Of a stretch of DNA of 64,000 bases, positions 5,891-55,500 are shown piece after piece. Every line of letters begins with the position of its first letter. Position 1 is the first letter of the stretch. The position numbers and the translations under genes are program-made. The stretch is from Diogma glabrata (taxonomy: Eukaryota > Arthropoda > Insecta > Diptera > Cylindrotomidae): contig OY856188.1 of the NCBI GenBank assembly GCA_963693315.1, positions 152,979,064 through 153,043,063 on the forward strand, in the 5' to 3' direction. The notes below the pieces were generated by a model. It saw nothing but the letters and a program-made list of their open reading frames with translations. It had not been told where the DNA came from and ran no database searches.

Positions 5891-5893
5891 CCG

Positions 5894-6286: not shown

Positions 6287-6317
6287 CCAGCTTTAAATTG
6301 CTACGGTGAGAAACTAC

Positions 6318-29138: not shown

Positions 29139-29174
29139 GTATTTTTGTTTTAGACTTAACTTAAAATTATTTAT

Positions 29175-32615: not shown

Positions 32616-32645
32616 AATTTGTGCTATTTCAAAATATTTGACATA

Positions 32646-33069: not shown

Positions 33070-33200
33070 ATAAAAAATTTGCGTCCATCGACACCTTAGA
33101 AAGCATTTTGTTGATGGAACCTTATTCTTCAAATGTTGTTATTTTTTGTTGTTGCTATATTGTAATTCGTACAACCCAACACATTTTATTCAAAACAAAC
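33070..33200 (+). mobile_element. Family-A LINE 3' tail fragment, diverged
   Basis: Contains 'tttgcgtccatcgacacc' and ends in 'caacccaacacattttatt', the family-A tail with many substitutions, preceded by an A-rich linker. Confidence 0.6.
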
Positions 33201-33289
33201 AATAGCGTGTCATCATCATCATCATCAAAGAATATTAATACTATAACTAAGACTAAGGGTGCTTTCGTTGATTGAAAATATTCCTCCGC

Positions 33290-33425
33290 CGCAACCCTTA
33301 AGATATCACTTTGGCTAGTGATATCTTACTGCTATTGCCAGTGGAATACGATATCTCAAGCTAACTCATATGCAAATAGCAGGGACCTAAGTACGCGGGG
33401 TTGTCACACCCATAGATCAAACATT
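33290..33425 (+). repeat. Copy of the R repeat
   Basis: Same motif order as the copy at 21404-21530 ('taagatatcac', 'gccagtgg', 'gctaactcatatg', 'gcagggac', 'cccatagatcaa'). Confidence 0.7.
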
Positions 33426-34767: not shown

Positions 34768-35057
34768 ATTCAAACCAGGGTTGGCATGATATATATCAAT
34801 GATATATATCCGATATATATCATTGATATATATCACGATATTTATTCCCTGATATATATCATGATATTTATAAAAAAAGAAATAATTAACTATATAAGAG
34901 AAATAATTAAAGTTAGAAAAACTGTTAACAGTAGCAGCACTGTCTGCAAAACGAATACCAAATCGGGGTAACCTAGCTCAGCTTGGTCGAGACCATAAAA
35001 CTGACATAGATCCTGACATAACAAAACTTATGACATAAATATTGTAATTTGTAATGA

Positions 35058-35490
35058 ATGCTAAACATATGCTTTGTTATCTTAAGTACTGCAGTCGCTT
35101 TAGACAGATCTCAAAGAGATAAAACGACTATTGCTGTTGTAGTTGAAATTTGGTATAAACTGAAAGTCGATCTTAAACTAGAAGAGCCTTTAAAAGTTAA
35201 GAGACTTTTTTATCGAAAGAGGGACATGTTCTTAAATGCACGTCATCCTAGCTAATTTATGCTTGACCATCGATTTTTAGGTAAACGTTTAAACAACCAC
35301 CAAAGAGACGAAAAGTATATTATATTTAGAGCTCGTTATTTAACTATAATTTTTTCAGACTTCCTTCTATTTATAATGGCGATTTTAGCTGAATCTACAC
35401 CATTTCCAAAATATTTATTTCAATCTCAGTTGGAATGCCTACCGAAGCAGGGTTATCCAGAATTTGATATACGGCCAAGCGTCCATTAAT
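35058..35490 (+). pseudogene. hAT transposase C-terminal remnant in H2
   Basis: Short frames give 'ALDRSQRDKTTIAVVVEIW', 'LMLDHRFLGKRLNNHQRDE' and 'AESTPFPKYLF', resembling the part of hAT transposases just before the dimerisation region, which includes a conserved hydrophobic and Trp-rich block. The dimerisation motif itself was not found. Stops separate the pieces. The equivalent in H4 is at 53756-54187. Confidence 0.6.
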
Positions 35491-35904
35491 GGTTAACAGT
35501 ATTTGACTTTTGTTATTGGGCCAGTACTAGAACCATTCATCGGCCGATCTATGGTTAACAGAAAATAGCCAGTATTAAGTTAACTTTGAATGGCCAAGCA
35601 CTGACCCATAAATGGTAAACAATACTTGGTTATTGTTATTGGGCCATTACTGGAATCATGAGTCGGCCAACCTACGGTTTGTAAAAATTAATCAGTAAAC
35701 TTTACTTTAAAATTTAAATGGCCAAGCTATGGCACGTAAATTGTTAACATTAATTGGCTACGCGCCAGGATGGACAATTAATTGATCCATCTTTGTCATT
35801 TGGTTAAAATTCACTCATTCATTTGGTTCAAAATCTATTCGCATTATCCATTTTAGAAATATGTATATAATTTGAAATATTTCGCATTTAGTTTAATTAT
35901 GGTA

Positions 35905-38430
35905 TCTCTGCTGAAAAACTAAACAATGGCTCATACACAGTTCCTCTACTGATGAGAAAGGTAAACAGGATGAACTGTTTGCTCTTTATCATAATTTCAC
36001 TCAGATAATAGATCAGCCTACCAGAGTTCCTGACATTCCTGGACAAAGAAGCAACTTACTTGATTTGTTTTTGACAAATGATCCATACTTAGTACAATTT
36101 AAAATATCAGAGCCTTTAGGTGGGTCAGATCATAATTTGATCTCCACAAAATTAAATATATAAATTCCAAAACAATTTAAAGCGAATCCCCGTCTTGTTT
36201 GGCACTACAAAGCGGCGGATTGGCAAGGACTTAAAATCTTCTTTAAACGCTTTCCTTGGAAACATAGTTGTCTTATTGGCCAAGACCCAAACACTGCTGC
36301 TCTTAATTTTTCTGAAATTATACTTGAGGGTATGTGCAGATTTATTCCTAATAAATTGGTCATTCCGAAGGTTGATCTTTGGTTTTCGAGTACATGCAAA
36401 AAAGCAATTAAAGTTAAAAAAAAAGCTTTTCGACAGTTTATCCAAAACAAAACTGATGAAAACCTTAGAGAGTATCGAAAAAAGAGAAATTTATGTAGGA
36501 AACTAATAGATGAAGAGAAAAATCTATTTAATTTGAAAAAAGCTTCTAAATTTGCTGAACACCCAACTGGTTCACGTAACTTCCTTAAAGCCGCTAAGGC
36601 TATCCAAGGCAATTTTTGTAAATCTTCTCTTCCTCCTCTTGTTGATAGAGATATACCTATTATTGACCCAAAAGAAAAGGCTAATTTGCTAGGACATTTT
36701 TTTCTATAAATTCTACATTAGACGAACCCAATTTCCAACCTAGACCTATTCCTAAAGCATCGCTCAAAATGAAGCGAATAATTTTTCGTAAAAACATTAT
36801 TAGAAAAATGCTTTTACAAATTAATACCAACAAGGCATCTGGGCCTGATCATATTCCTCCAATTATGCTTAAAACGTTTGCTAGGGAGCTGACACCTATC
36901 CTCACTAAAATATTTTATTTGTCTTATAAGAAAGGGATTTTTCCTGAAATATGGAAAATTGCTAGTGTACAGCCAGTTGCAAAAAAGGGTAGTAAAACTG
37001 ACCCATCCAATTATAGACCCATTTCAATTTTGTCAGTAGTTTCTAAAGTTTTTGAGAAATATATAAATTTTAATTTAATGAGCTTCTTAGAATTTTCCAA
37101 ATTACTTAATGAAAGACAATACGGCTTTCGAAAAGAAAGAGCAACGGGAGATTTGCATTCGTTTGTTACTCATCTTTGGAACAAATCCCTTGAAAACTTT
37201 GGTGAGACTTTCGGTGTTGCTCTTGATATTTCCAAAGCATTTGACAAGGTTTGGCACAAAAATCTTATATGCAAATCGAGAGGTTATGGTTTAGATGAGC
37301 CACTAATTTCTTGGATGCAAAGTTTTATATCTGAGCGAAAATTTCGAGTCAATGTTGACGGTATTTCATCGGATGTATTTTCGACTAATGTAGGAGTTCC
37401 TCAAGGTTCCGCTTTATCCTCAACTCTTTTTCTTATCTATATTAATGACTTGTTGATTTTAACAATTAATCCTATCCATAGTTTTGCTGACGATAGCACT
37501 CTTCATGCATCTCATGCTGCACCTAGATTATATTCACCTTTAGAGCTTAATAACTGTAGATCAAATTTGATAGATTCATTAAACGTTGATCTTAAAACAA
37601 TTTTTGATTGGGGTATTGCTAACAGTGTTGAATTCAATACGTCCAAAACACAAGTTTGCCATTTTTCAAGATTGTCAACACCTAACCCTTTTCCATTGAA
37701 GTTTGATTCCAACGATCTGATGGAGAAAGAGTCCGTGAAACTTCTAGGAGTCGAGATTGAAAATAATATGAAATGGAATTCCCATATTTTTAGCCTAGCG
37801 AAGAGCGCTGTTCAAAAATTGGGGTTTTTAGAACGATGTCGTAAGTTTTTCAATAGTGAACAGCTTCTTTGAATTTACAAATCTTTTATACGTCCCTGCA
37901 TGGAATATTGTTCTCATATATGGGGTGGAGCATACTTATGTAGTTTGAAGTATCTTAATTCTGTACAGCGGAGAGCAGTTAAATTAATTGGTAACTCAAA
38001 TCTTACTAATGACCTTGATTCCTTGCAGCATAGAAGAAATGTTGCTGATTTGACGATTTTCTACAAATATATCATGGATGAACGGGTTTCTGAAGAAATC
38101 AAATCGATTTTACCTAATTCTGCAAACCTATCACGTCATACCAGAGCATCTGTAGCGGCCCATCCTTTTACATTAGATGCCTTCCAGCACGACTTGTTCA
38201 ACAGAGTCTCTCATCTCTGGAATTCGTTACCTTTGTGGGTTTTCCCTGATAACTTTAATCCGCAAAAGTTCAAAGTCGCCGTTCATAAATTTCTCAAAGA
38301 AACTTAATTCTCAATCGATTCTAATCCCTAGTTGGCATGGTATCTTCGGATATTCAGAGACGTTAATATATAATTAATTATATTAACACTAAATATGCCT
38401 AGCTTTCAATAAAAAAAAAAAAAAAAAAAA
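35905..38430 (+). mobile_element. LINE family B, copy 1, nested in hAT H2
   Basis: A 5'-truncated LINE that begins inside the endonuclease (a 'LGGSDHNLIS' block near 36118) and ends in a 22-nt A-run at 38410-38431. Comparison with H1, which lacks it, shows it interrupts the hAT interior. The other copy is nested at the same place in H4. Confidence 0.85.
36195..38307 (+). pseudogene. LINE family B ORF2 (reverse transcriptase), disrupted
   Basis: Frames cover a linker (36332-36709), the reverse transcriptase (36769-37872) and the C-terminal region (37900-38307). Reverse transcriptase landmarks: 'NKASGPDHIPP', 'SNYRPISILSVVSKVFEKY', motif A 'ALDISKAFDKVW', motif B 'GVPQGSALSSTLFLIYIND' and motif C 'FADDSTLHAS'. 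A TGA at about 37870 breaks the frame before 'IYKSFIRPCMEYC', a frameshift lies near 36705, and a one-base run-length difference in the 36420 A-run breaks the linker in this copy only. It is related to family A at moderate divergence. Confidence 0.85.
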
Positions 38431-39293
38431 ATGTTAAGGTTGGTATAAGTTTAAAATTTTTTTTTGTTTAGACATCTTTGCTTTATTTTAATTATTTTGT
38501 ATTTAATTTATTTAAATTTACATATTTTATTTAATATTTTTAATGGCCCTGTCACGGTTGCCAGTATTCGGTCATTGTTCCAATATCGGACATTATTAGT
38601 TTTCTGTTACTACGCCAGATGTACAACCTTGTATGGGTCGTTGCCGTTTTTTCTCTGGTAAATGAATGGCAGCAATTTATTTTTCCGAATTTATCAACAA
38701 GTAAAATTATGTCACTGGCCGAGTTATAGTAGCCAGTACTATGAGTCATGGTTGCCAGTACCCGGTCATTGTTGAATTACTGGTCGCCGGCAATTGACCA
38801 TTACTGGACCAGTTGTATAGCCTTGTATGGACCATTGTCGGCTTTTTTCTGTCGGCACTCATTTATTGTTCGAAGTTATCATCCAGTTACATTATGTTTA
38901 TGGTCCAGCTATGGTTGCCAGTACTGCTTTACTGGTCGTCAGTAATGAATCATTTCTGAACCAGTTGTACAACCGTGTATGGGTATTGATGATGCAACCT
39001 GGCCAAATTGGACTTGCGCTATCGAAGATATAGATAAATATGCTTGATAAATTGCCTATAAACTAAATTGGAGTTGCCATATTTGAATTTAGTTTATAGC
39101 CAAAGAGGTAATAAACGAGGAAGTGATTCGATGCACTGCATGCAAGTGTGGAAAGGGCCTTATATCGTATAATATTTAAGATAAACAACTTATTAAAAAA
39201 TAAATATCAGAACTTGATATATATCGGATATATATCTGATATATATCGGATATTTTGATATTTATATAAATATCATGATATTTGCCAACCTTG

Positions 39294-39879
39294 ACACCAA
39301 ACAGTACATGCAAAAAAAAATATTTTTTTCTACGATAAGGGTACCCTTGGGAGTAAAAAATGGTTATGTCATAGATCAGGGGGTAATATGGGGAATTGTA
39401 TTTGTTATAAAATTCTGATTCTAACGATGACATGACATATTTTACTCATTTAATGTGTCAACCCTACCCACGGGGTTGGTTGGGGGTGAGGGTGCAAACT
39501 CAAAAGTTGCCCCGGTCTGAATAAAAGATAATGGTGCCATTAAATTTTTTTTATCTCTTCCCATTTATTTTATATAGATTTTTATATGCTAAAACTTAAA
39601 GAGGGTGTAAAGTGGTGAGGGTGGGTCCTACCACCCCAATCTCATTAAGTTTTCGGGAGACGGCCAAGTCCGATCGATTAATACCATAATCACAAAATTG
39701 AGTCAAAAAAATATCCAAAAACCACGTTTTCTGCCCGATTCTTAAAAAAAAACGATAGTTAAGTTTTATTTATCCGATATTCTTTGGTTTTTTCGATTAC
39801 GAATACCCGTACGTAAACGAAAAAAACCAAAGAATATCGGATAAATAAAACTGAAATTTAAACACTGGTTTATTGGGAA
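39294..39879 (+). mobile_element. Part of a minisatellite-armed element (Z), left of hAT H3
   Basis: This sequence parallels 60297-60770: 'tggttatgtca.agatcagg', 'ttttactcatttaatgtgtc', 'gacggccaa.tcc' and 'ctgcccgattctta'. It continues across hAT H3 at 41430-41560. Its missing left neighbour is at 54478 onward, across the inverted interval. Confidence 0.75.
39757..39850. mobile_element. Small foldback insertion of about 92 bp
   Basis: The arms 'gttttatttatccgatattc' and its complement (stem about 33 bp) enclose a spacer of about 22 bases with 'acccgtacg'. It is absent from the parallel sequence near 60750, where 'cgatagtta' runs directly into 'aatttaaacactgg'. Confidence 0.7.
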
Positions 39880-41429
39880 CAAGGTTGGCAAATATCATGA
39901 TATTTATATAAATATCAAAATATCCGATATATATCGGATATATATCTGATATATATCAAGTTCTGATATTTATTTTTGAATTATTTGTTTATCTATAATA
40001 TTATATAATATGCAGTAGAGGGCGTTCTAGTTTTACGCAAGCAATCTTCCTATGATTTTGAACCCCCATGTATAAGCAAAAAGTTGTACAATCTTTTTAT
40101 CTTACGCAAGATTTTTAAAATCTCCTCAGGAAAAATAAGAAAAAATTGAAGAACCCAAAGAAACGAAGAAGAATAAAATCGTCAATTTGCTAGCATTTTT
40201 GTTTCCGCAAGTCTATTACTTACCTTCGATTGCACAAGTCCAAAAAACGAAACCGATAAAAAGCCTGTTTATTTATTTGGTCAATTCGCATCATCAATAG
40301 TAATTACTTTCCATTATACCATTGGTGATGTATTTCTAAACTGAGATCCAAATACATATTTTGGAAATGGTGTAGATTCAGTTAAAAGCGCCATTGCAAA
40401 TGTCATTTATAATTTTAGTTATGTCAGGATCTCTGTCATCTTTGTTTGTAGTCTTGGCATAGTTGAACCAGATTACCTCAATTTTTTAAAAATGACTGTT
40501 ACTGGTCATCGTGCTCCATGGGATAAAATTAGTTTCTTCCCGAGTATTTTTTCTGCAAAGGGAGTATGGGTAGGTAAATGTTTATTTCGATAACATTTTA
40601 TTACTCGTAAAACGTGACCAGTAAATGCAGAATTGTGTCAGTCCAATGTCAATAGGTTTAATATGTGTGCTGAGCATCCATATTGTTTTAAGTTGTCACC
40701 CTCTGCGTATCTTCCCATTTTAGCAACATTACTACTATTATCTATAACTACGCTTCGTACTGACTACTGATACTCCAAATTTTTTAGTGGCGTTAGAAAT
40801 TGATTCCAAGGCATTTTCTTTAAGGTATTCTGATATATATGATTTTTACCAGATGCATCAACAGTATCAATAAGTAAGTGCAAATTCACGAGACTGAGTT
40901 TCAAAATATGTACATATATTATTGGTTCGTTATGTATGTTACTCCATTCCATCCAAAGAATGGAGTCTCCATCATATTTATTTTAACATTAAATCATTAA
41001 TTCGGAATAAACTTTGTTCAAAATAGGTCCTCCAATCTGGCGTTTACTCAAAGCGACATAACCCGGTCCGGTTTGGTATTTTATTACAACAAACCAACGA
41101 TATTATATTAACAACTCAACTCAACGCCCATTCAAATTTTAAATCGACAATTAATGCCCAATCTACTGAAGAAATATTGAACTAAACATTGTAAAATAAC
41201 CCGAAAGGAATTCGGAGAATTACATGAATAAAGACGTTGTTCTATGATAGGTATGCATTTTGTGCGCAGAGTGTTACCACTGTTAACAGTTTATCTAACT
41301 TTAAGATAGGAACAGTTAAGCATTAATTCTTTTATAAATATCATGATATATATCAGGGAATAAATATCGTGATATATATCAATGATATATATCGGATATA
41401 TATCATTGATATATATCATGCCAACCTTG
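39880..41429 (-). mobile_element. hAT element H3 with transposase remains and a perfect 8-bp target duplication
   Basis: The ends CAAGGTTGGCA and TGCCAACCTTG lie in minus orientation relative to H1. The octamer attgggaa flanks it at 39872-39879 and 41430-41437. The empty site survives near 60778 ('tttattgggaacgattgaa'). It keeps more transposase sequence than H1, H2 or H4 and has no LINE inside. Confidence 0.92.
40330..40990 (-). pseudogene. Decayed hAT transposase in H3
   Basis: On the minus strand, a frame at 40952-40764 reads 'MEWSNIHNEPIIYVHILKL' and 'LIDTVDASGKNHIYQNTLKK'. The next pieces give 'NVAKMGRYAEGDNLKQYGCS', 'AHILNLL' and 'VLRVIKCYRNKHLP'. The order matches the RNase-H-like core of hAT transposases, where the DGWTN/NEPI, TDNASNM, GCxAHxLNLL and RNHHLP blocks follow one another. 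Several stops and frameshifts prevent a full product. Confidence 0.7.
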
Positions 41430-41560
41430 ATTGGGAACGATTGAAAAATAAAATTTCAGATGTTTATTCGAAAAGAAAGATTGATTTTAGAAATTTTGAA
41501 ACTTTCCTTCGGATATAAAAATTTGCTATTTTGTTTTATTTTTTTCTTTTATTATAAAAG
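41430..41560 (+). mobile_element. Z element sequence right of hAT H3
   Basis: Continues 'cgattgaaaaataaaat', 'attcgaaaagaaagattga' and 'ttcggatataaaaatttgc', matching 60783-60895, which confirms that H3 inserted into this repeat. Confidence 0.75.
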
Positions 41561-41654
41561 TCCTCTTGTATTGACGTGTTTATAGAGCCTCTTACATGTG
41601 TAAAATCAAGTATATCCTTATTTTTGGCTTTCAATTTGGCTTCCAACATTTGGC

Positions 41655-43340
41655 TTGTTCGCTGAACGCTTTGCTCTGAACTCCACTGTTTTGGAAACTC
41701 CTGAAGAAATACCCCAAATCCAGTCTTCAGGAGTTAATATGAATGAACTTCACTTCAAACCCAAAATAGTCGCTAAACTTTTAAAGGGGTTAAACATCAA
41801 CAAAGCATCAGGAATGGACAATATTCCACCCATTATTTTAAAAACCTTTTCCAAAGAACTTGCACCAACTTTATCGAAAATATTCTACCAATCCTACAAA
41901 TCTGGTATATTTCCATCGTGCTGGAAGTTGGCAAATGTCCGGCCCGTCCCCAAAAAGGGACCAAAATCCGATATCTCAAATTATAGGCCAATAGCTTTAC
42001 TATCGGTCCTATCCAAAGTCTATGAGCATTATATTAATGCACATATTTCAAAATTTCTGGAAGAAAATCATTTAATATCCGACAGCCAATACGATTTTCG
42101 AAACAAAAGATCAACTACCGATCTATTAAACTATGTAGCGCATTGTTGAAAGAGCATACTTGATAAAGGTGGTGAAACATACGTTATCGCTTTAGACATC
42201 GCCAAGGCATTCGATCGAGTCTGGCATGCCAACTTAATCAACAAGCTCGTTGCGTACGGTTTTCATCCCAATGTTGTGAAGCTGATTCAAAATTTTCTAT
42301 CCAACCGATACATTTCGGTAACCTTAGACGGATTTTCTTCTGAGTCTAAACTAATTAACGCTGGTGTACCCCAAGGCTCAGTATTGTCCCCAACCCTATT
42401 TTTGATTTATATCAACGAATTGTTGAAAATCACCAGTAACCCAATAAATAGCTTTGCAGATGATAGTACTCTGCACAAGTCGTTCGAGCCCCTTCCTTCA
42501 AAAGGTAAAATGCACGAACGAATTAATCCTGCCCGGAGAGACGCTGCCATAAACGTGAACAAAGACCTGAATAAAGTCGCCGACTGGGGTGACCAAAACC
42601 TTGTCAATTTCAACTCCACCAAAACACAGCTGTTGATTGTTTTCAGATTAAAGACCGAGTTCCCCAAAGATATTTTATTTAGTATGTGTGATGAACGAAT
42701 AGGTGAATGTAATAACATTCGTTTATTGGGTGTCACAGTTTCAAATGACCTACTCTGGAACGATCATGTAATGGCGATGGCAAAAAGCGCGTCTAAAAAA
42801 CTCGGCCTCCTAAATAGATGCAAAAAATTTTTCACTCCATACCAATTGCTCCATGTTTATAAGTCCTATATTCGTCCCTGTATGGAGTACTGCTGTCAAT
42901 TTTGGGGTGCTGCCTCTGTTTCCATCTTGGCCCTCTTGGACTCTGTTCAAAAGCGGGCTATACGAATTGTGGGTGATCGAACTTTGACATCAAAACTTGA
43001 TTCCCTACAACATCGTCGCACTGTTGCTGACCTCGTTGTTTTTTACAAATATCGTCATCACCAGTGCTCAGATGAAATCAGCGGCATCATGCCTCAAACT
43101 TATTCTTACCCCCGTTCCACTCGGCAATCGGCTGCCGCAACCAGTGAAACGGTAAAGATCCCGCGCTGTCATACTGGCAGATCGCAGAGAGACTTCTTTG
43201 TCCGAACTGCGTACAAATGGAATAGTTTGCCGGAACACTTAGTCTCAGGTGGCTTCAACCCACAGATGTTTAAAAAAAGCGTTAATCTACACCTTAGAAC
43301 GCCAGTTGTTGTGGGACCCAGGTCTAGACCTATGTCTTAA
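41655..43340 (+). pseudogene. LINE family A reverse transcriptase, one premature stop
   Basis: The frame 41655-42149 ends in a TGA after 'LLNYVAHC'; a second long frame at 42276-43340 follows. Visible motifs: 'NKASGMDNIPP', 'SNYRPIALLSVLSKVYEHY', motif A 'ALDIAKAFDRVW' between the frames, motif B 'GVPQGSVLSPTLFLIYINE' and motif C 'FADDSTLHKS' intact. It ends with the family C-terminus 'GPRSRPMS'. The TGA is at the same position as in the intron-1 copy but is absent from the 46.5 kb copy, so the two share a defective ancestor. Confidence 0.85.
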
Positions 43341-43412
43341 AAGGTATTTATGTGTTGTTGTGACACATATTCTAAACCCTATTACACAACACATTTTAAT
43401 TAAAAAAAAAAA
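41655..43412 (+). mobile_element. LINE family A, copy 3, 5'-truncated
   Basis: Family-A similarity starts at 'cttgttcgctgaacgcttt' and ends in an A-run at 43402-43412. Upstream sequence is unrelated. Confidence 0.9.
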
Positions 43413-44160
43413 TAAATTTGTGTTATTTCATACAAAAATTGTATTGTGAAATTAAGATTATAATTTAAATAGTTTGGAGCGGTTTAAAATGATGAAAAAT
43501 GAATGATGATGACTGAAGCTGGGTTTTAGCATGCGAACTGCAGAGGACTGTGAACTTTTTTCTTAACCCATCAGAAATTTTATATTCACCAAAAAACTCT
43601 TATTTTTAATTGGTTAATAATTCCATCTACAGCCCACAGTTTGCCTGTTAAAACCCAGCTTGAGAAATTGATGTTATGAAAAATTTTTTGATTTCCTTAT
43701 TTCACGTATTCTACAATTTTTATGAAAATATTTTTTTATAGTACGCTTAAAGTCCACAACCATGTTACCTGGGTGACGCTAAGAGTATTGTGATGTATAA
43801 AACTCAAATGTATGTTTTCCTGGTTGAAGGAGGCTTGGTGCGAACATCGTTCTTCGTATATTTATAAACAGTGAAACATTAAAGATAATTTAAGGAGTTT
43901 TGTAACAGACTTTATAAATGTGTTTAAGCTAATGAAAAATATATCAGTGCAATTACAGTTCTAACAACTATGTATGGGCGACTTTTTTAGACGGCTAAAA
44001 ATGAAACTTTCAATGAAACAGATTTAATATTCAATAGTAGCATTTCTTTTAATTTACTGCGAAATAAAGTAATATGAGCGGCAATGTTTATTGATTCAAG
44101 GTTTAATTATAGATTAAAAAACATAATGCACCTAAAACTTCTGTATTAAGGTAGGTGTTC
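43413..44160. other. Interval without a recognised gene
   Basis: AT-rich sequence. The block near 43520-43670 has the inverted pair 'ctgggtttta' and 'taaaacccag', about 140 bp apart, which could be a small MITE; no target duplication was confirmed. Confidence 0.4.
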
Positions 44161-45108
44161 GGAACATTAGTGAGCTGTTCCAGGTTGTTTCCTGTTGCAA
44201 GGATCGAGCAGTCGTCTGCATATGACGTGGTTATATTGCCGTCATAAGTAAAAACACATTAATGCAAAAAATATAAAAGAATGAGCTCATTCCACCTTAG
44301 CAGTTACGAAACGTTATTCTATGACCCTGCCAAGTAAAAACATGATAAAATAACTCTAAACATGAAAATTCAATTTAAAACCCCGTTAAATTGAAAAACA
44401 TTTGCTTCAGTATCTAAACCGTCATACGTAAAAACGCAGTATTTTTACATAAAAAACAACATTAATAAAATATAGGCATGTTTTTCTTATGTAGAACATA
44501 ATTTAATAGTATAAATAAACTTAATAGCACAAGAAAGAAGTTGTAAAGCTACTGAAAAAGGTTGGCATAAACTCTTTTAGTTTTTGTCGTTTTTCTCAGT
44601 TCCAACATTTAGGTGGCGTTTATGTTTATGACGGCAGTATGCCTTCCGGTCAGGCCGGTAGACTACTTAGGTAAAGGTTTAATAATGAAGGTGAGAGAAC
44701 TCCACCTTGTGGAACCCATCTGATCTCATCTTAGATCTAGAGTTACGGAACTCAACGTATGTTTGGCGGCCTCTTAGGTAGTTGCACAACCTGCGCTTTA
44801 CTAAACCTTTCAGATTAGTGTTGAATATATCGTAGTGCAGCGTGTGACACTGTGTCGAAAGCTTTTGATAAGTCAAGTGCAACTAAAATTGTTCTGTTAC
44901 AGGGTTGTTTTTGGTTCAGACCATCACTGATTTGGTTTTGGATTCTGTGAAGAGCGGTGATTGTACTATGTGCTTTCCTAAAGCCATGTTGATGGGACGC
45001 CAATTTGCAAGATCCAGTTAACCGAGGTAGCAGAAGTGCTTCAATCAATTTTGCAACCGATGAGAGGATAGTGATCGGTCTATACTCTATAGGATTCTCC
45101 CTTCTCAA
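44160..45108 (-). pseudogene. Reverse transcriptase fragment of a third LINE family, split by an insertion
   Basis: Read from 45108 down: 'IEYRPITILSSVAKLIEALL', 'HQHGFRKAHSTITALHRI', motif A 'LVALDLSKAFDTV', then after a frameshift the 'GLVKRRLCNYLRG' block and a broken motif B region 'VPQGGVLSPSLLNLYLSSLP' near 44700. Motif C 'SYADDCSILATGNN' appears near 44220 beyond an inserted block. These are Jockey/BS-type motifs. Endonuclease and C-terminus are missing. Confidence 0.7.
44236..44636. mobile_element. Short inverted-repeat element inside the LINE fragment
   Basis: It begins 'ccgtcataagtaaaaac' and ends 'gtttatgacgg', and separates LINE motifs B and C, which are normally about 30 codons apart. 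An internal copy of the end, 'ccgtcatacgtaaaaac', lies near 44419. No coding sequence. Confidence 0.6.
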
Positions 45109-45182
45109 GAAGATATTTAGAGACGTTAATTTATAGCTTATTATTTAACCCTAAACATGCCTAACTGTATGTAAAAAAAACA
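45109..45182 (+). mobile_element. Family-B LINE 3' tail fragment
   Basis: Contains 'atttagagacgttaat' and 'ctaaacatgccta', then an A-run, matching the last 70 bp of family B (38350-38410). Confidence 0.65.
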
Positions 45183-45434
45183 CTAGGAGTGATAGGTAGT
45201 CAGAGGTTATCACGCAATATTAGTTGTAACTCACTAGATCCATCTTGCGTGGCGCACTGAAGACGTATTGGATTGGTGAGGCTGGTAAGGTAGCATCGGT
45301 CTGCGACTAGGGCAATTCAGCGAACGTATCCGTTCCGCTAGACATGATATATAATAGCGGACAAAAGACTCCTATAGCTCTGGTAAGCCAGACCCAGTGG
45401 TAACTTACATTTTTGACATTTCGAGATATTAACA
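45183..45434. other. Short interval without a recognised feature
   Basis: Less AT-rich than its surroundings; no domain or repeat boundary recognised. Confidence 0.4.
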
Positions 45435-45559
45435 CTTTTTTTTTAATAAAAAGTGTTGTGTAGTAGGAATTACAAAATGTGTCACAAAACAAGATACCTT
45501 TTAAGACCTAGGTCCCACAACAACATGCGTTCTGAGGTGATGGTGGACGCTTTTTTTAA
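45435..45559 (-). mobile_element. Family-A LINE 3' tail fragment
   Basis: T-run, 'agtgttgtgtagtagg', 'aagacctaggtcccaca' and 'acatgcgttctgaggt' match the family-A 3' end; about 125 bp retained. Confidence 0.8.
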
Positions 45560-45871
45560 ATGTTTTCATCATTTTGTTTTAGTAGCATAGTGAGATATGA
45601 ACGTTTATTTTACCTTAGTAAAGCCCAGCGTCATACATGATACTAAGGCATTTTATCGTAACTTTCTAGGTTACGATTGAAATAGCTTAGTAATTGATAG
45701 ATACGGCAAATTGCTATAGTAATTGCTAACCGTAAAGAAGAAACGGCATATTTAATAGAGTTATTCTGTGCTTAGCACGGCAGTGTATTGCTGTGTAAAT
45801 TATAACAAATAATAAATTTATGATGTTTTTGGCCTTTAAAAGTACCATATTACAACTACCGTTTGGATGGG

Positions 45872-46170
45872 TTTTTTTTTTAATAAATTGTGTTTTGAAG
45901 TAGGGTTTACAATTACAGTCAAACTTCCATAAATCGAACTTCTATTATTCGAATTTCTCTATAAATCGTATTAATATTTCGAATTAAAATTTTGATTTTC
46001 TTTATAAATCGTTTCTATATTTCGAAATTTCCCTAAATCGAACTAAAATTGATGGCTTTTGGTGGTTCGAATTATGGAAGTTTCACTGTACATATATATA
46101 ATCACAACACATAAAAACTTTTTAAGACCAAAGTCTCACAACATGCGTTCTAAAGTGTTGATGGACGAAA
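45872..46170 (-). mobile_element. Family-A LINE 3' tail interrupted by a pogo-like MITE
   Basis: The tail runs from a T-run at 45872 to 'tgatggacg' near 46166, with the MITE at 45916-46088 in its middle. Confidence 0.75.
45916..46088. mobile_element. pogo/Tigger-like MITE, 173 bp, TA target
   Basis: Termini CAGTCAAACTTCCATAAAT and the complement of CAGTGAAACTTCCATAATT are flanked by TA on both sides (45914-45915, 46089-46090). The CAGT start with a TA duplication fits Tc1/mariner-pogo elements. No coding capacity. Confidence 0.75.
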
Positions 46171-46384
46171 ACTTTTGTTAATACAGATACAGTCGTAAAT
46201 CGACCCAAACCTTTTAAAATTAAAATGTTTATTATTGTGGCGAGAAGATCTGTAGATGTCGCCTATAAAGAAAAACTTTACGAACATTTGCAATGATTCA
46301 TCATGTAAAATGCGTAAATTCATTCTTGCATTTAACGCAAAGGCAAAATTGACATTTCTTTGTAGCATTATATATTAATATATA

Positions 46385-47886
46385 TTTTTTTTTTAATAAG
46401 AAGTGTTGTGTAGTAGGAATTACAAAATGTGTCACAACAACACATAGATACCTTTTAAGACGTAGGTCCCACAACAACATGCGTCTTGAGGTATAGGTGG
46501 ACGCTTTTTTTAAATCTTTGTGGATTGAAGGCATTCAAGACTATTGATTCGGGCAAAGCATTCCATGTGTACGATGTACGCACAAAGAAATCTCTTTGCA
46601 TTCTATTACTATGACAGTGAGTAATCTCGACAGTTCGACCGCCCGCACAAACCGATTGACGAGTAAAACGGGGAAAAACATAGGTCTGAGGCATTATGGA
46701 CCTGATTTCTTCCGAGCACTGCTGGTGACGATATTTATAAAAAACGACGAGATCAGCAACAGTGCGACGATGTTGCAGGGAATCAAGACCTAATGTTAAA
46801 TCTCGATCACCAACAATTCGTATAGCTCGCTTTTGAACAGAGTCCAAAAGAGCCAGGATAGTAACAGATGCAGCGCCCCAAACTTGACAACAATACTCCA
46901 TACAGGGACGAATATAGGACTTATAAATGTGGAGTAATTGATGCGAAGTAAAATATTTTTTACATCTATTGAGGAGGCCGAGTTTTCTTGACGCGCTCTT
47001 TGCCATGGCCATTATATGATCGTTCCAGAGTAAGTCATTGGATATTGTGACTCCCAATAAACGAATGCTTTCACATTCGTCTATTTGGTCGTCACACATA
47101 TTAATTGAAATATCGTTGGGATACTCGGTCTTTGATCTGGAAACAATCAATAGCTGTGTTTTGGTGGAATTAAAATTGACCAAATTTTTGTCACCCCAAT
47201 CGGCGACTTTTTTTAGGTCCTCGTTTACATTTATGGCAGCGTCTCTCCGGACGGGATTTATTCGTTCATGCATTTTACCCTTTGAAGATAGGGGGACGAA
47301 TGACTTGTGCAGTGTACTATCATCTGCAAAACTATTTATTGGGTTACTGGTGATTTGCAACAGTTCGTTGATATAAATTAAAAATAAAGTGGGAGATAAA
47401 ACTGAGCCTTGGGGTACACCAGCGTTAATTAATTTGGACTCAGAAGTAAAGCCATCTATAGATACCGAGATGTATCGGTTAGACAGAAAATTTTGAATCA
47501 ACTTCACGACTGCGGGATGAAAACCGTACGCAACGAGCTTGTTTATCAAGTTGGCATGCCAAATTCGATCAAATGCTTTTGAGATGTCTAATGCGATCAC
47601 GTACGTTTCACCACCTTTCTCAAGTATGCTATTCCAAATATGTGCCACATAGTTCAATAGATCGGTTGTTGATCTTTTGTTTCTAAAACCGTATTGGTTG
47701 TCAGATATCAAATGGTTGTCTTCCAAAAATTTAGATATGTGTGAATTAATATAGTGCTCGTATATTTTAGACATGACTGGGAGTAAGGCTATTGGTCTAT
47801 AATTTGAAATATCACATTTCGTTCCTTTTTTTGGGACAGGTTGGACATTGGCCAACTTCCAGCAGGATGGATAAATACCAGATTTA
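46385..47886 (-). mobile_element. LINE family A, copy 4, 5'-truncated
   Basis: T-run at 46385-46394, then family-A sequence up to 'ccagattt' at 47886, where similarity ends at a 'atctt' microsatellite. Confidence 0.9.
46455..47855 (-). CDS. LINE family A reverse transcriptase fragment with open frame (466 codons)
   Basis: This is the only family-A copy in the window whose reverse transcriptase frame is open throughout: 'SNYRPIALLPVMSKIYEHY', 'QYGFRNKRSTTDLLNYVAHI', motif A 'ALDISKAFDRIWHAN', motif B 'GVPQGSVLSPTLFLIYINE', motif C 'FADDSTLHKSF', and the C-terminal 'SYIRPCMEYCCQVWGAA' and 'RDFFVRTSYTWNALPE'. It lacks the endonuclease and the true start, so it is a truncated, probably inert gene copy rather than a host gene. 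Confidence 0.85.
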   Translation of the reverse strand: MANVQPVPKKGTKCDISNYRPIALLPVMSKIYEHYINSHISKFLEDNHLISDNQYGFRNKRSTTDLLNYVAHIWNSILEKGGETYVIALDISKAFDRIWHANLINKLVAYGFHPAVVKLIQNFLSNRYISVSIDGFTSESKLINAGVPQGSVLSPTLFLIYINELLQITSNPINSFADDSTLHKSFVPLSSKGKMHERINPVRRDAAINVNEDLKKVADWGDKNLVNFNSTKTQLLIVSRSKTEYPNDISINMCDDQIDECESIRLLGVTISNDLLWNDHIMAMAKSASRKLGLLNRCKKYFTSHQLLHIYKSYIRPCMEYCCQVWGAASVTILALLDSVQKRAIRIVGDRDLTLGLDSLQHRRTVADLVVFYKYRHQQCSEEIRSIMPQTYVFPRFTRQSVCAGGRTVEITHCHSNRMQRDFFVRTSYTWNALPESIVLNAFNPQRFKKSVHLYLKTHVVVGPTS

Positions 47887-47905
47887 TCTTATCTTATCTT
47901 ATCTT

Positions 47906-49220
47906 TCTTATATATATATAAAAATCACGTGTCACGATGTTTGTCCGCGACAAACTCCGCAACAACGTAACCAATCTTAATGAAATTTTGTACAATGTGT
48001 GTATGATGGTCCAGCTTGAGAGATAGGATAGTTATTATCTTCTTATATATATTAATACGCTAGATTAAAACTTTGTGGAGCATTAGGCTTTTTTATTCGC
48101 AGATGGATTCATTTGAAATTTTCACAGCTAACTGATACTAGTGTAACCTATAGTCGGATCCGGATTCAAAAAAATCGGATCATAAATAAAAAAGTTATTA
48201 TATACGGAAAACTTTTTATATACATATGCATTATAAGTTTACATACATATAAAAACGAAATTTAAAATTTATTTTATTTTTTTATATTTTCTTTTTTATA
48301 TATTAGCGAACAACGAACAACAAAAACGAAACTTTTTTTTCTCATTCATTTCAGTGATCAGTCGTATTTTGTCTTTGAACAAAGGATGGTTTTCGAGTCG
48401 TCGGAATAAAACAGATTTATGCGTAATAATGTTGATTTTATGAATGATATTTTATGAATGATATTTATGATGATATTTTATGAATGATATTTTCTTTTTT
48501 ATATATTAGCTATCGAAAAAATTTATTTTCATTTTTAAATCATTCATTTCAGTCGTCTTTTGTCTTTGAACAAGGACGGTTTTCGATATTATTTCGATTA
48601 TTTTGTTTATTGATATAAAGATATTTGCGTAATATTTTTCTTTGGTACTCTGAATCGGCGTTATGCGCGGTTGAATTTTTGAGGCTTTTTCACGTAGTTT
48701 TGGTAATGGTTTAAAACTTAAAACTTTTTTTCTTTTTTTATATTTACTAGGAGGGCCCGGCGTGCTTCGCTACGCTTATAAATAAAGTTTTTGCGTAGAC
48801 ATTTTGTTGACGTAGAAGCAATGATTTCAAAAAGTGGTAATGAGAAATGCTACCATATAATTTTTAATTTTTCTTTTTAAATATATGAATGAAAAATAAT
48901 CAGAACTCTAGCTGATCAGTTCGGATATATGAAAAATTAGCGAAGCTTACTTGAAAACTTATTTGATCGCTAATTTTTCATATGCTAATTTTTCATACGA
49001 AGCTTACTTGAAAACTTATTTGATCGCTAATTTTTCATATATCCGAACTGATCAGCTAGAGTTCTGATTATTTTTCATTCATATATTTAAAAAGAAAAAT
49101 TAAAAATTATATGGTAGCATTTCTCATTACCACTTTTTGAAATCATTGCTTCTACGTCAACAAAATGTCTACGCAAAAACTTTATTTATAAGCGTAGCGA
49201 AGCACGCCGGGCCCTCCTAG
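47906..49220 (+). mobile_element. Helitron-like non-autonomous element
   Basis: The left end TCTTATATATATATAAAAAT, followed by 'cacgatgtttgtccgcgac' and 'aatcttaatgaaatttt', resembles insect Helitron 5' ends. The right end is GC-rich ('gcgaagcacgccgggccct') and closes with CTAG, as Helitron 3' ends do. The 5' flank is not the expected A and the 3' flank is C, so the assignment is tentative. Internal sequence is non-coding with short 'atgaatgatattt' repeats near 48435-48490. Confidence 0.5.
48747..49220. repeat. 474-bp palindrome with perfect arms of about 200 bp
   Basis: The left arm, from 'ctaggagggcccggcgtgc' to 'gaaaaattagcg', is matched base for base by the reverse complement of the right arm. 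The centre of about 65 bp holds two direct copies of 'aagcttacttgaaaactt'. Each outer end is a Helitron-like 3' terminus ending CTAG. Confidence 0.9.
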
Positions 49221-49957
49221 CCTTGATTAAATTCCTAAATTTTTTAAAATTACGAATTAAATGTTAAATATGGATGCTTCATATGCCAACTTTCAGATGG
49301 CAGCGTAAATCAATTTATTCAATTGATAGTAAACTTCAACTTCGTATAAAGCCATTACTAGACTATCAAATATGTTTTAGTAAAGAAAGTTTTGTTTTAT
49401 TTGATAATAAACGAAAAGCATATTATTGTAAGTCAAATACGTTACCAAAGATTATTGATAATTTTGTGGAGGTTATATATTAATTATAGAAGTGTTAGAA
49501 AATATCGAAACCTGTAAAAAAATTATTGTATTGGTTTTTATAAAGTTTGAATAAAAATAAGAGTAAAAATTAAAGAAAACAATAATTTAAATTTATTTTT
49601 TTAAATTTTTCATTGATCTTCAATATTAGTTTACAAAAATCAATATCAAATTGAAAAATACTCTTATTTGTATTGCTTATTATAATAGAACGATTAGAGG
49701 TAAAAAAAATTGTCATCAAAACTGGATGAAAAATTAGCGAAGTTTATTTTACAACTTTTACACCATTGAATAAATCTACGGAAGAGTAACTAGACATTTT
49801 GAGTGAAGCTTCTAATTTTTAGTATTGGTGAAGTTTGATAGTGTTTGCATTCTAGCTGGGTGGTATACTAATTACAATTTGCATATTCATATTTTCAAAA
49901 CAAATAAAAGAAATAATAAAGGTTACATATAAATTTAAAAGCCTAATATGTTTGAAT
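49221..49957. other. Interval with one unrecognised small open frame
   Basis: A frame at 49274-49483 encodes about 70 residues rich in Lys, Tyr and Ile with no domain recognised. Near 49730, 'atgaaaaattagcgaag' matches the inner part of the adjacent palindrome, so some of this may be related repeat sequence. Confidence 0.4.
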
Positions 49958-50820
49958 CAAGGTTGGCAAATATCATATATTTATATAAATATCAAAATAT
50001 CCGATATATATCAGATATATATCCGATATATATCAAGTTCTGATATTTATTTTTTAATAAGTTGTTTATCTTAAATATTATACGATATAAGGCCCTTTCC
50101 ACACTTGCATGCAGTGCATCGAATCACTTCCTCGTTTATTACCTCTTTGGCTATAAACTAAATTCAAATATGGCAACTCCAATTTAGTTTATAGGCAATT
50201 TATCAAGCATATTTATCTATATCTTCGATTGCACAAGTCCAATTTGGCCAGGTTGCATCATCAATACCCATACACGGTTGTACAACTGGTTCAGAAATGA
50301 TTCATTACTGACGACCAGTAAAGCAGTACTGGCAACCATAGCTGGACCATAAACATAATGTAACTGGATGATAACTTCGAACAATAAATGAGTGCCGACA
50401 GAAAAAAGCCGACAATGGTCCATACAAGGCTATACAACTGGTCCAGTAATGGTCAATTGCCGGCGACCAGTAATTCAACAATGACCGGGTACTGGCAACC
50501 ATGACTCATAGTACTGGCTACTATAACTCGGCCAGTGACATAATTTTACTTGTTGATAAATTCGGAAAAATAAATTGCTGCCATTCATTTACCAGAGAAA
50601 AAACGGCAACGACCCATACAAGGTTGTACATCTGGCGTAGTAACAGAAAACTAATAATGTCCGATATTGGAACAATGACCGAATACTGGCAACCGTGACA
50701 GGGCCATTAAAAATATTAAATAAAATATGTAAATTTAAATAAATTAAATACAAAATAATTAAAATAAAGCAAAGATGTCTAAACAAAAAAAAATTTTAAA
50801 CTTATACCAACCTTAACATT

Positions 50821-53345
50821 TTTTTTTTTTTTTTTTTTATTGAAAGCTAGGCATATTTAGTGTTAATATAATTAATTATATATTAACGTCTCTGAATATC
50901 CGAAGATACCATGCCAACTAGGGATTAGAATCGATTGAGAATTAAGTTTCTTTGAGAAATTTATGAACGGCGACTTTGAACTTTTGCGGATTAAAGTTAT
51001 CAGGGAAAACCCACAAAGGTAACGAATTCCAGAGATGAGAGACTCTGTTGAACAAGTCGTGCTGGAAGGCATCTAATGTAAAAGGATGGGCCGCTACAGA
51101 TGCTCTGGTATGACGTGATAGGTTTGCAGAATTAGGTAAAATCGATTTGATTTCTTCAGAAACCCGTTCATCCATGATATATTTGTAGAAAATCGTCAAA
51201 TCAGCAACATTTCTTCTATGCTGCAAGGAATCAAGGTCATTAGTAAGATTTGAGTTACCAATTAATTTAACTGCTCTCCGCTGTACAGAATTAAGATACT
51301 TCAAACTACATAAGTATGCTCCACCCCATATATGAGAACAATATTCCATGCAGGGACGTATAAAAGATTTGTAAATTCAAAGAAGCTGTTCACTATTGAA
51401 AAACTTACGACATCGTTCTAAAAACCCCAATTTTTGAACAGCGCTCTTCGCTAGGCTAAAAATATGGGAATTCCATTTCATATTATTTTCAATCTCGACT
51501 CCTAGAAGTTTCACGGACTCTTTCTCCATCAGATCGTTGGAATCAAACTTCAATGGAAAAGGGTTAGGTGTTGACAATCTTGAAAAATGGCAAACTTGTG
51601 TTTTGGACGTATTGAATTCAACACTGTTAGCAATACCCCAATCAAAAATTGTTTTAAGATCAACGTTTAATGAATCTATCAAATTTGATCTACAGTTATT
51701 AAGCTCTAAAGGTGAATATAATCTAGGTGCAGCATGAGATGCATGAAGAGTGCTATCGTCAGCAAAACTATGGATAGGATTAATTGTTAAAATCAACAAG
51801 TCATTAATATAGATAAGAAAAAGAGTTGAGGATAAAGCGGAACCTTGAGGAACTCCTACATTAGTCGAAAATACATCCGATGAAATACCGTCAACATTGA
51901 CTCGAAATTTTCGCTCAGATATAAAACTTTGCATCCAAGAAATTAGTGGCTCATCTAAACCATAACCTCTCGATTTGCATATAAGATTTTTGTGCCAAAC
52001 CTTGTCAAATGCTTTGGAAATATCAAGAGCAACACCGAAAGTCTCACCAAAGTTTTCAAGGGATTTGTTCCAAAGATGAGTAACAAACGAATGCAAATCT
52101 CCCGTTGCTCTTTCTTTTCGAAAGCCGTATTGTCTTTCATTAAGTAATTTGGAAAATTCTAAGAAGCTCATTAAATTAAAATTTATATATTTCTCAAAAA
52201 CTTTAGAAACTACTGACAAAATTGAAATGGGTCTATAATTGGATGGGTCAGTTTTACTACCCTTTTTTGCAACTGGCTGTACACTAGCAATTTTCCATAT
52301 TTCAGGAAAAATCCCTTTCTTATAAGACAAATAAAATATTTTAGTGAGGATAGGTGTCAGCTCCCTAGCAAACGTTTTAAGCATAATTGGAGGAATATGA
52401 TCAGGCCCAGATGCCTTGTTGGTATTAATTTGTAAAAGCATTTTTCTAATAATGTTTTTACGAAAAATTATTCGCTTCATTTTGAGCGATGCTTTAGGAA
52501 TAGGTCTAGGTTGGAAATTGGGTTCGTCTAATGTAGAATTTATAGAAAAAAATGTCCTAGCAAATTAGCCTTTTCTTTTGGGTCAATAATAGGTATATCT
52601 CTATCAACAAGAGGAGGAAGAGAAGATTTACAAAAATTGCCTTGGATAGCCTTAGCGGCTTTAAGGAAGTTACGTGAACCAGTTGGGTGTTCAGCAAATT
52701 TAGAAGCTTTTTTCAAATTAAATAGATTTTTCTCTTCATCTATTAGTTTCCTACATAAATTTCTCTTTTTTCGATACTCTCTAAGGTTTTCATCAGTTTT
52801 GTTTTGGATAAACTGTCGAAAAGCTTTTTTTTTTAACTTTAATTGCTTTTTTGCATGTACTCGAAAACCAAAGATCAACCTTCGGAATGACCAATTTATT
52901 AGGAATAAATCTGCACATACCCTCAAGTATAATTTCAGAAAAATTAAGAGCAGCACTGTTTGGGTCTTGGCCAATAAGACAACTATGTTTCCAAGGAAAG
53001 CGTTTAAAGAAGATTTTAAGTCCTTGCCAATCCGCCGCTTTGTAGTGCCAAACAAGACGGGGATTCGCTTTAAATTGTTTTGGAATTTATATATTTAATT
53101 TTGTGGAGATCAAATTATGATCTGACCCACCTAAAGGCTCTGATATTTTAAATTGTACTAAGTATGGATCATTTGTCAAAAACAAATCAAGTAAGTTGCT
53201 TCTTTGTCCAGGAATGTCAGGAACTCTGGTAGGCTGATCTATTATCTGAGTGAAATTATGATAAAGAGCAAACAGTTCATCCTGTTTACCTTTCTCATCA
53301 GTAGAGGAACTGTGTATGAGCCATTGTTTAGTTTTTCAGCAGAGA
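50821..53345 (-). mobile_element. LINE family B, copy 2, nested in hAT H4
   Basis: T-run at about 50819-50839, then the family-B 3' end, reverse transcriptase and endonuclease remnant, at the same position within the hAT as in H2. Confidence 0.85.
50942..53055 (-). pseudogene. LINE family B ORF2, copy 2, disrupted
   Basis: Frames 53055-52540 (linker), 52480-51377 (reverse transcriptase with FADD motif C) and 51349-50942 (C-terminus). The stop after 'KFFNSEQLL' and the frameshift before the reverse transcriptase are shared with copy 1. The linker frame is longer here because an A-run differs by one base. Confidence 0.85.
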
Positions 53346-53755
53346 TACCATAATTAAACTAAATGCGAAATATTTCAAATTATATACATATTTCTAAAAT
53401 GGATAATGCGAATAGATTTTGAACCAAATGAATGAGTGAATTTTAACCAAATGACAAAGATGGATCAATTCATTGTCCATCCTGGCGCGTAGCCAATTAA
53501 TGTTAACAATTTACGTGCCATAGCTTGGCCATTTAAATTTTAAAGTAAAGTTTACTGATTAATTTTTACAAACCGTATGCCAACCATGATTCCAGTAATG
53601 GCCCAATAACAATAACCAAGTATTGTTTACCATTTATGGGTCAGTGCTTGGCCATTCAAAGTTAACTTAATACTGGCTATTTTCTGTTAACCATAGATCG
53701 GCCGATGAATGGTTCTAGTACTGGCCCAATAACAAAAGTCAAATACTGTTAACCA

Positions 53756-54187
53756 TTAATGGACGCTTGGCCGTATATCAAATTCTGGATAACCCTGCTT
53801 CGGTAGGCATTCCAACTGAGATTGAAATAAATATTTTGGAAATGGTGTAGATTCAGCTAAAATCGCCATTATAAATAGAAGGAAGTCTGAAAAAATTATA
53901 GTTAAATAACGAGCTCTAAATATAATATACTTTTCGTCTCTTTGGTGGTTGTTTAAACGTTTACCTAAAAATCGATGGTCAAGCATAAATTAGCTAGGAT
54001 GACGTGCATTTAAGAACATGTCCCTCTTTCGATAAAAAAGTCTCTTAACTTTTAAAGGCTCTTCTAGTTTAAGATCGACTTTCAGTTTATACCAAATTTC
54101 AACTACAACAGCAATAGTCGTTTTATCTCTTTGAGATCTGTCTAAAGCGACTGCAGTACTTAAGATAACAAAGCATATGTTTAGCAT
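53756..54187 (-). pseudogene. hAT transposase C-terminal remnant in H4
   Basis: Same short peptides as in H2 at 35058-35490, in reverse orientation. Confidence 0.6.
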
Positions 54188-54469
54188 TCATTACAAATTA
54201 CAATATTTATGTCATAAGTTTTGTTATGTCAGGATCTATGTCAGTTTTATGGTCTTGACAAAGCTGAGCTAGGTTACCCCGATTTGGTATTCGTTTTGCA
54301 GACAGTGCTGCTACTGTTAACAGTTTTTCTAACTTTAATTATTTCTCTTATATAATTAATTATTTCTTTTTTTATAAATATCATGATATATATCAGGGAA
54401 TAAATATCGTGATATATATCAATGATATATATCGGATATATATCATTGATATATATCATGCCAACCCTG

Positions 54470-55500
54470 TTTGGTGTCGATTTCAATATAATCGGGGATG
54501 CTGAGTGGGATGATGATGGTGATGATGATGGTATGGATGATGATGGTAAATGATGGGAATGATGATGGTGAAAATGTTGACCGAACGCAGGGTAGTTCAA
54601 TAAGGGGTGGGGATTGGGGGTCGGTTATAAAAAATATCGAAATTATCGTCATCACTATCAATTTTAACATAATCGAAGATGCTGCGTTCAATTATGATAA
54701 TAAAAATTGGGGCCGGACTCAGGATCCTGAGCTTTAATCATTAAAAAATATACTGCGTCCTATAATCAAGGATTATGCCATTAGCTGGAGTATTGGCAAA
54801 CCAATTTTAGTTTTGTTCCTGCAAATTTTTAAAACAAATTTGCTTTTTATCTCTTATTTTATTTTTATTTTGTCTATCCTATCACGAAATATTGGCCTAT
54901 GTCATATTTTATATGTGATAGGATTTATGTTTTAGTTATCCATTATTGAACAAAAAAAATTAAAAAAAAAACAAAAAAAAACAGATTTGCGTCCATTAAC
55001 ATCCTTAGAACGCATGTTGTTGTGGGACCTTGGTCTTAAAAGGTTTTTATGTGTTGTTGTGACACATATTGTAATGCCTACTACACATCACATTTTATTA
55101 AAAAAAAAATAATAGGTGGGGGTTGGGGGGTCGTTTACACAAAGTATCGAAATTATTGTCATTATTATTGATTTTTATATAGTTGCTGAGTTCAATGGTG
55201 ATGTTAAAAATGTTGACCGGACTCAGGATAGTTCAATAAGGGGTAAGGGTTGTGGGTCTGGTCATGAATAGTATCAAAATTATCGTCATTATTTCGATTT
55301 TAACATAATCAAAGATGCTAAGTTCAATGGTGATGATAAAAAATGGTGACCGGATTCAGGTTAACTCAATAAGGGTTGTGTGTTGGGGTAGAATAGTATC
55401 AAAATTCGTCATTAGTGTTGATTTCAACATACCTGAGGACGCTAAATCCAACAGTGATGTTTAAATTGGGATCAAAAATATAAGGGTGTCACTAAAGGGT
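54470..55500 (+). mobile_element. Z element: minisatellite arm
   Basis: Degenerate units of about 127 bp with 'gaccggactcagg.tagtt', 'aataaggggt' and 'ttgggg.tcgg' repeat along the interval, interrupted at 54765-55110 by a retroelement. The same units, in reverse, occupy 59930-60300. Read together with 39294 onward it rebuilds the uninterrupted sequence at 60.3 kb. Confidence 0.7.
54765..55110 (+). mobile_element. SINE-like or truncated LINE element with a family-A 3' tail
   Basis: The body, A-rich linker and tail match 22283-22580 plus 24484-24518, ending in 'ctacacatcacattttatt' and an A-run. It is inserted in the Z arm. Confidence 0.65.

What the first reader, a model, noticed from the sequence alone, without database searches (positions are those of the whole stretch)
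39294..49957. A 10.7 kb segment appears inverted between two hAT copies whose target duplications are exchanged
H2 (34776-39293) is flanked by attcaaac and acaccaaa; H4 (49958-54469, opposite orientation) by gtttgaat and tttggtgt, the complements of the same two octamers. Neither element has matching flanks now, but inverting the DNA between them gives H2 attcaaac on both sides and H4 tttggtgt on both sides, two perfect 8-bp hAT duplications. The economical explanation is recombination between the inverted 4.5 kb copies. A mis-oriented assembly across the repeats would look the same.
Basis: partly seen in the sequence, partly recalled or inferred. Interest (0 to 1): 0.9.

Follow-up and report, generated by a model that had tools for sequence, protein, structure and literature searches.

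The report
Transposon-flanked 10.7 kb intrachromosomal inversion
In this fly genome a 10.7 kb piece of DNA lies flipped between two nearly identical jumping genes; copies of the surrounding repeats elsewhere in the genome show how it lay before, which makes it a clean example of a known way that chromosomes get small inversions.

Summary
H2 (34776-39293) and H4 (49958-54469, reversed) are 99.6% identical and their flanking octamers are exchanged: ATTCAAAC|H2|ACACCAAA, GTTTGAAT|H4|TTTGGTGT; chance about 7e-9. Controls: 2 of 2 other window copies and 11 of 13 two-ended genome copies have identical octamers; one has 7 of 8, one 3 of 8. Independent evidence: each element had jumped into a dispersed repeat, and unoccupied paralogues keep the old order. 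At H2's site 7 of 7 returned paralogues cross from 34775 into the reverse complement of 49949 downward; at H4's site 7 of 7, and a copy at 60 kb in the window, cross from the reverse complement of 54470 onward into 39302 onward. None crosses the assembled joins by my 15-30 base criteria. So the segment is inverted relative to its state at insertion. Likeliest cause: crossover between the inverted copies (0.65). One-step hybrid-element transposition leaves the same octamers and is not excluded, nor is misassembly; I had no reads and no second individual. New member of a known kind (Galileo and BuT5 inversions of Drosophila).

The parts
32176..34775 (+). Left part of dispersed repeat R into which H2 jumped (reaches at least to 32176; the fetched paralogues end there)
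   Evidence: 95-97% in L030-L035, and from 33685 in L036
34768..34775 (+). Octamer A, ATTCAAAC: outer half of H2's target-site duplication
34776..39293 (+). H2: non-autonomous hAT-like element, ends CAGGGTTGGCA / TGCCAACCTTG, carrying a LINE fragment
35922..38426 (+). LINE fragment inside H2 (RVT_1 in ORF 36685-37869); absent from L010 and L011, where the matches to H2 positions 1146 and 3652 lie 4 bp apart; limits approximate
39294..39301 (+). Octamer B', ACACCAAA: belongs with H4's outer octamer
39294..49957 (.). Inverted segment, 10,664 bp
39302..39767 (+). One half of the second dispersed repeat, whose other half lies beyond H4
39880..41429 (-). H3: related element with matching octamers (ATTGGGAA) carried inside the inverted segment; control
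49222..49957 (-). Right part of repeat R, now reversed and about 14.4 kb from its left part
49950..49957 (+). Octamer A', GTTTGAAT: belongs with H2's outer octamer
49958..54469 (-). H4: second copy, opposite orientation, same LINE cargo
54470..54477 (+). Octamer B, TTTGGTGT: outer half of H4's target-site duplication
54478..55307 (-). Other half of the second dispersed repeat (internally repetitive, outer limit uncertain)
60000..60765 (+). Unoccupied paralogue of H4's insertion site, both halves contiguous
22581..24475 (+). H1: related element without LINE, matching octamers ATTGTAGT; control

Best explanation
Two copies of one LINE-loaded, non-autonomous hAT-like element inserted about 10.7 kb apart in opposite orientation, H2 into repeat R at ATTCAAAC and H4 into a second repeat at TTTGGTGT. 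A crossover between the 4.5 kb inverted copies (non-allelic homologous recombination) then flipped the DNA between them, which moved one half of each target-site duplication to the other element and split both host repeats. Shown: the exchanged octamers, the near-identity and opposite orientation, and the un-inverted order at both sites in unoccupied paralogues. Inferred: that a crossover did it, and that the arrangement is real in the animal.
For: Exchanged octamers, 16 of 16 bases, chance about 7e-9. 4.5 kb inverted copies at 99.6%. H2 site: 7 of 7 returned paralogues cross the un-inverted join, six as far as 49222 and L035 for 79 bp before an interruption; 0 of 7 cross either assembled join; the 80-bp junction view holds one ATTCAAAC in all seven. 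H4 site: 7 of 7 returned paralogues and the 60-kb copy cross the un-inverted join; in four of the seven the match reaches 200 bp or more to the far side, in L046, L051 and L052 only 48 bp; 0 of 7 cross an assembled join by 20 bases. Family copies as a rule carry matching octamers: 2 of 2 in the window, 11 of 13 in the genome. H2-H4 homology ends within 5 bases of the element ends. Near-identical 4-kb inverted repeats flip a 24-kb segment again and again on evolutionary time in Saccharomyces (PMC9731477, abstract and one section read).
Against: Chimeric copies, the mark that settled the matter for Galileo (PMC2775673), cannot be shown: H2 and H4 differ by 12 substituted bases (complex change included) against 51 and 54 from L009, the nearest other full LINE-bearing copy found; read by L009, 6 of 11 differences are private to H4, 4 to H2 and 1 is unresolved, with no switch point along the element. 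One of them (34985) reads the other way by H1. The route needs two events where hybrid-element insertion needs one. In Saccharomyces no flip was seen in about 53,800 mitoses and 950 meioses. One as-assembled H4 join matches the 60-kb copy for 10 bases beyond the join, below my criterion. No reads, second haplotype or relative were seen; the inner probe 43450-44450 finds only itself over its full length.
Confidence: 0.65

Rival explanations
1. Hybrid-element insertion (sister-chromatid transposition): transposase paired the left end of the element on one sister chromatid with the right end of the same element on the other and inserted the hybrid about 10.7 kb away. One event makes the second copy, the inverted segment and the exchanged octamers together.
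For: It predicts opposite orientation, close linkage, exchanged duplications and two copies identical at birth, all compatible with what is seen. PMC2775673 says its outcome is strikingly similar to ectopic recombination (passages); sister-chromatid transposition is described for Ac/Ds of maize (PMC3744419, passages).
Against: Rare compared with ordinary transposition (recalled, not measured here). For Ac/Ds sister-chromatid events the passages read name bridges, breaks, inverted duplications and deletions, not clean inversions. No transposase source was seen: 10 of the 37 short ORFs listed from H1, H2 and H3 were scanned and no hAT model appeared.
Confidence: 0.17
2. Assembly error: the two copies stand un-inverted in the animal and the assembler joined the flanks through the wrong copy at both ends.
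For: Inverted near-identical repeats are a classical place for it (general knowledge); the un-inverted order is exactly the expected original.
Against: No N in the 64 kb, so it is not a mis-turned piece between gaps; the two copies are kept apart by 11 separate differences; the elements are short beside long reads. The sequencing technology is unknown to me.
Confidence: 0.15
3. Reversed-ends transposition using two elements on one chromatid.
For: Known for Ac in maize, where it makes inversions with an element at each breakpoint (PMC8225341, passages).
Against: Its inversions carry one new matching duplication at the breakpoints and lose the fragment between the elements, while recombination leaves the inner duplications inverted and the elements with usually non-identical flanks (PMC8225341). 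Here two different octamers are exchanged and no loss is seen within 40 bp of either join. The facing inner ends of H2 and H4 are both right ends, not a left-right pair.
Confidence: 0.02
4. Segmental inverted duplication, or chance resemblance of the octamers.
For: None beyond the inverted pair itself.
Against: Homology stops within 5 bases of the element ends; both host repeats have unoccupied paralogues in the un-inverted order.
Confidence: 0.01

Closest known systems
Inversion 2z3 of Drosophila buzzatii, generated by the transposon Galileo (PMC2775673; abstract and passages read)
   Same: Two copies in opposite orientation at the breakpoints with exchanged target-site duplications, each the reverse complement of the other's
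   Different: There non-inverted chromosomes were sequenced and the copies proved chimeric; P-superfamily element, 7-bp duplications, cytologically mapped. Here hAT-like, 8-bp, 10.7 kb, no non-inverted chromosome and no usable chimerism test
Inversion 2s of D. mojavensis, BuT5 copies (PMC3355041; passages read)
   Same: Exchanged duplications taken as evidence for ectopic recombination between transposon copies
   Different: 9-bp duplications, a different element, fixed in the species
Saccharomyces chromosome XIV flip/flop region (PMC9731477; abstract and one section read)
   Same: A 24-kb segment between almost identical 4-kb inverted repeats, of comparable geometry
   Different: The repeats are host genes and flipping is recurrent; recurrence is not tested here
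Ac/Ds alternative-transposition inversions of maize (PMC8225341, PMC3744419; passages read)
   Same: Cut-and-paste elements at both breakpoints, 8-bp duplications
   Different: Reversed-ends events carry one new matching duplication rather than two exchanged ones

Membership tests
[quoted passage not shown]
   99.6% over 4525 aligned columns, minus strand
[quoted passage not shown]
   Both pairs exact reverse complements
[quoted passage not shown]
   Unoccupied paralogues, 7 of 7 returned at each site; the orthologous non-inverted chromosome itself was not available
[quoted passage not shown]
   H2 and H4 differ by 12 substitutions, L009 from them by 51 and 54; private changes show no switch point
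[quoted passage not shown]
   One assembly only; one 1 kb inner probe finds no second full-length copy
hAT superfamily | 8-bp target-site duplications | tested here: met
   2 of 2 window controls and 11 of 13 genome copies exact
hAT superfamily | Short terminal inverted repeats beginning CAG or CAA | tested here: met
   CAGGGTTGGCA or CAAGGTTGGCA at one end, TGCCAACCTTG at the other; that this is typical of hAT is recalled
hAT superfamily | hAT transposase encoded | tested here: not met
   10 of 37 listed short ORFs from H1-H3 scanned, no hAT model at E up to 1. A non-autonomous element need not encode one; I therefore say only hAT-like
Hybrid-element insertion | Two copies identical at birth, exchanged duplications, no deletion or duplication | tested here: inconclusive
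   All compatible, but equally so with crossover between sister copies

The most novel reading that the evidence does not exclude
The inversion, the second copy and the exchanged octamers arose together in one hybrid-element (sister-chromatid) transposition of a hAT-like element in an insect, so that some inversions read as ectopic recombination would really be single transposition events.
Probability: 0.17. Interest if true: 0.5.

Novelty: new member of a known kind. Interest (0 to 1): 0.3.

Why it matters
It is a fully readable case: both breakpoints, both duplications and the pre-insertion order at both sites can be read from one assembly. The method, unoccupied paralogues of the host repeats, could find such events genome-wide without a second genome. 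It also shows that exchanged duplications between very similar neighbouring copies do not by themselves separate recombination from one-step hybrid insertion.

Tried and rejected
Gene test for misassembly: I looked for a gene broken by the breakpoints. A dipteran swm (RBM26/27-like) gene has a first-exon match at 7185-7244 (6 of the 8 relatives printed) and coding matches from 26382 to about 29140, with one in-frame TAA near 26700 that I take to lie in a short intron (inferred). Its conserved acidic last exon was not recognised in the window by two motif patterns, and a genome search with relative P0010 gave two matches, both in the known part. So the segment may lie in the last intron, but that is unproven and does not decide between real and misassembled.

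Chimerism test: tried with H1 and H3 and with L009; uninformative. Spacing of the H2-H4 differences: with 9 events at random a gap of 2 kb or more has P = 0.053, not enough to call a homogenised tract.

Second haplotype: one 1 kb inner probe, no second full-length copy; only that kilobase was tested. Searches with 49230-49957 and with the LINE junction 37700-38700 did not complete and were not repeated further.

Full report
What was checked. H2 is 34776-39293 and H4 is 49958-54469 on the other strand. They differ by 7 isolated substitutions, three 1-bp indels and one complex 13-to-8-bp replacement. Under the window's own 8-mer frequencies one random pair of octamers matches with probability 8.3e-5 and two pairs with 6.9e-9.

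Does the family normally carry matching octamers? Yes. In the window H1 (ATTGTAGT) and H3 (ATTGGGAA) do, 2 of 2. In the window's own genome (1.33 Gb, 1788 contigs; the window is C4:152979064-153043063) the first 600 bp of H2 gave 40 scored candidates, H2 and H4 among them, out of 1161 first-look candidates. I fetched 20 of the other 38. Seven were dropped because the match did not reach both element ends. Of the 13 left, 11 have identical octamers, L019 has 7 of 8 and L017 3 of 8.

Independent evidence for the un-inverted order, H2's site. H2's left flank is part of a dispersed repeat (40 scored places, itself included; the others at 91-97%). Seven loci besides the window's own were returned. 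In 7 of 7 the sequence that ends at 34775 crosses into the reverse complement of 49949 downward, with one ATTCAAAC at the join. Six reach 49222; L035 is interrupted 79 bp past the join and resumes further on; L036 covers a shorter left part. In 0 of 7 does either assembled join match across by 30 bases.

H4's site. It lies in another dispersed repeat (40 scored places, itself included). Again 7 of 7 returned paralogues cross from the reverse complement of 54470 onward into 39302 onward; four match for 200 bp or more on the far side, L046, L051 and L052 for 48 bp only, because that part is internally repetitive. Six carry ACACCAAA at the join; L046 has a one-base variant. 0 of 7 cross an assembled join by 20 bases. 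A copy at 60000-60765 of the window itself does the same as the seven; one as-assembled H4 join matches that copy for 10 bases beyond the join, below the 15-base criterion. So both host repeats were whole before insertion and both are now split with their halves exchanged.

The elements. I call them non-autonomous because the longest ORF listed in H1, H3 and the non-LINE parts of H2 is 82 aa, and 10 of 37 such ORFs showed no transposase domain; the ends and 8-bp duplications are hAT-like. H2 and H4 share a LINE fragment with a reverse-transcriptase domain at a place that is empty in L010 and L011. A third full LINE-bearing copy, L009, lies on the same scaffold at 229.56 Mb with its own perfect duplication AATTATAC; it differs from H2 by 51 and from H4 by 54 substitutions, against 12 between H2 and H4. 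H2 and H4 are therefore the closest pair seen, probably by a local jump (inferred).

Mechanism. Crossover between inverted copies predicts exchanged duplications and chimeric copies (PMC2775673 passages; PMC8225341 passages). The first is met; the second cannot be tested because no parental copies are distinguishable. Reversed-ends transposition predicts one new matching duplication at the breakpoints and is contradicted. Hybrid-element insertion between sister chromatids predicts the same octamers and two identical copies in one event and is not excluded; Delprat et al. used chimerism to decide against it for Galileo. I favour crossover because, once two such copies sit 10.7 kb apart, flipping can recur on evolutionary time, as in the Saccharomyces flip/flop region with 4-kb repeats (PMC9731477 abstract), although there no flip was seen in about 53,800 mitoses and 950 meioses. 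In people 17 of 22 predicted inverted-repeat inversions were validated, many with signs of recurrence (PMC3961182 abstract).

Real or assembled wrongly? The sequence cannot decide. Against error: no N in the window, and the copies are kept apart by 11 differences. One inner probe of 1 kb has no second full-length copy in the assembly. The gene test failed (see tried and rejected).

Host. The named proteins among the 120 listed relatives (of 1328) of the swm gene whose names show an organism are from Diptera, the first ones sand flies, so the host is a fly; the species is not known to me.

Literature. A search for 'exchanged target site duplications', 'exchanged TSDs' and the two 'swapped' forms found 2 papers, both on Drosophila. 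I make no claim that a hAT case is unpublished.

Noticed in passing
53578-53588 (H4), against 35660-35672 (H2): A complex change private to H4 creates TGCCAACCATG, 10 of 11 bases of the element's own end, in mid-element; H1 and L009 resemble the H2 state. Either a tiny local inversion of GCCAACC or a patch copied from an element end.
   Followed up: partly
34985/34989 and 39017/39020: Four of the 7 isolated H2-H4 substitutions lie in two close pairs; two pairs within 4 bp among 7 has P = 0.0007. Conversion from other copies or multi-base mutation.
   Followed up: partly
L017:539-2419 (G000 C1, 53.98 Mb): Another family copy with non-matching flanks (GTAACTAT / ATTCTTAC, 3 of 8); by eye its right flank reads like LINE coding sequence of the kind at 42150-43340. 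Possibly a second rearranged copy.
   Followed up: partly
14869-17309: Tandem duplication of 1222 bp, 99.2% identical.
   Followed up: no
48747-49220, 5886-6295, 62496-62793: Long stretches that match their own reverse complement (91%, 82%, 81%); the first lies directly beside the edge of repeat R at 49222.
   Followed up: no
7185-7244 and 26382-29140: swm gene with a first intron of about 19 kb and a last coding exon not recognised in the window.
   Followed up: partly
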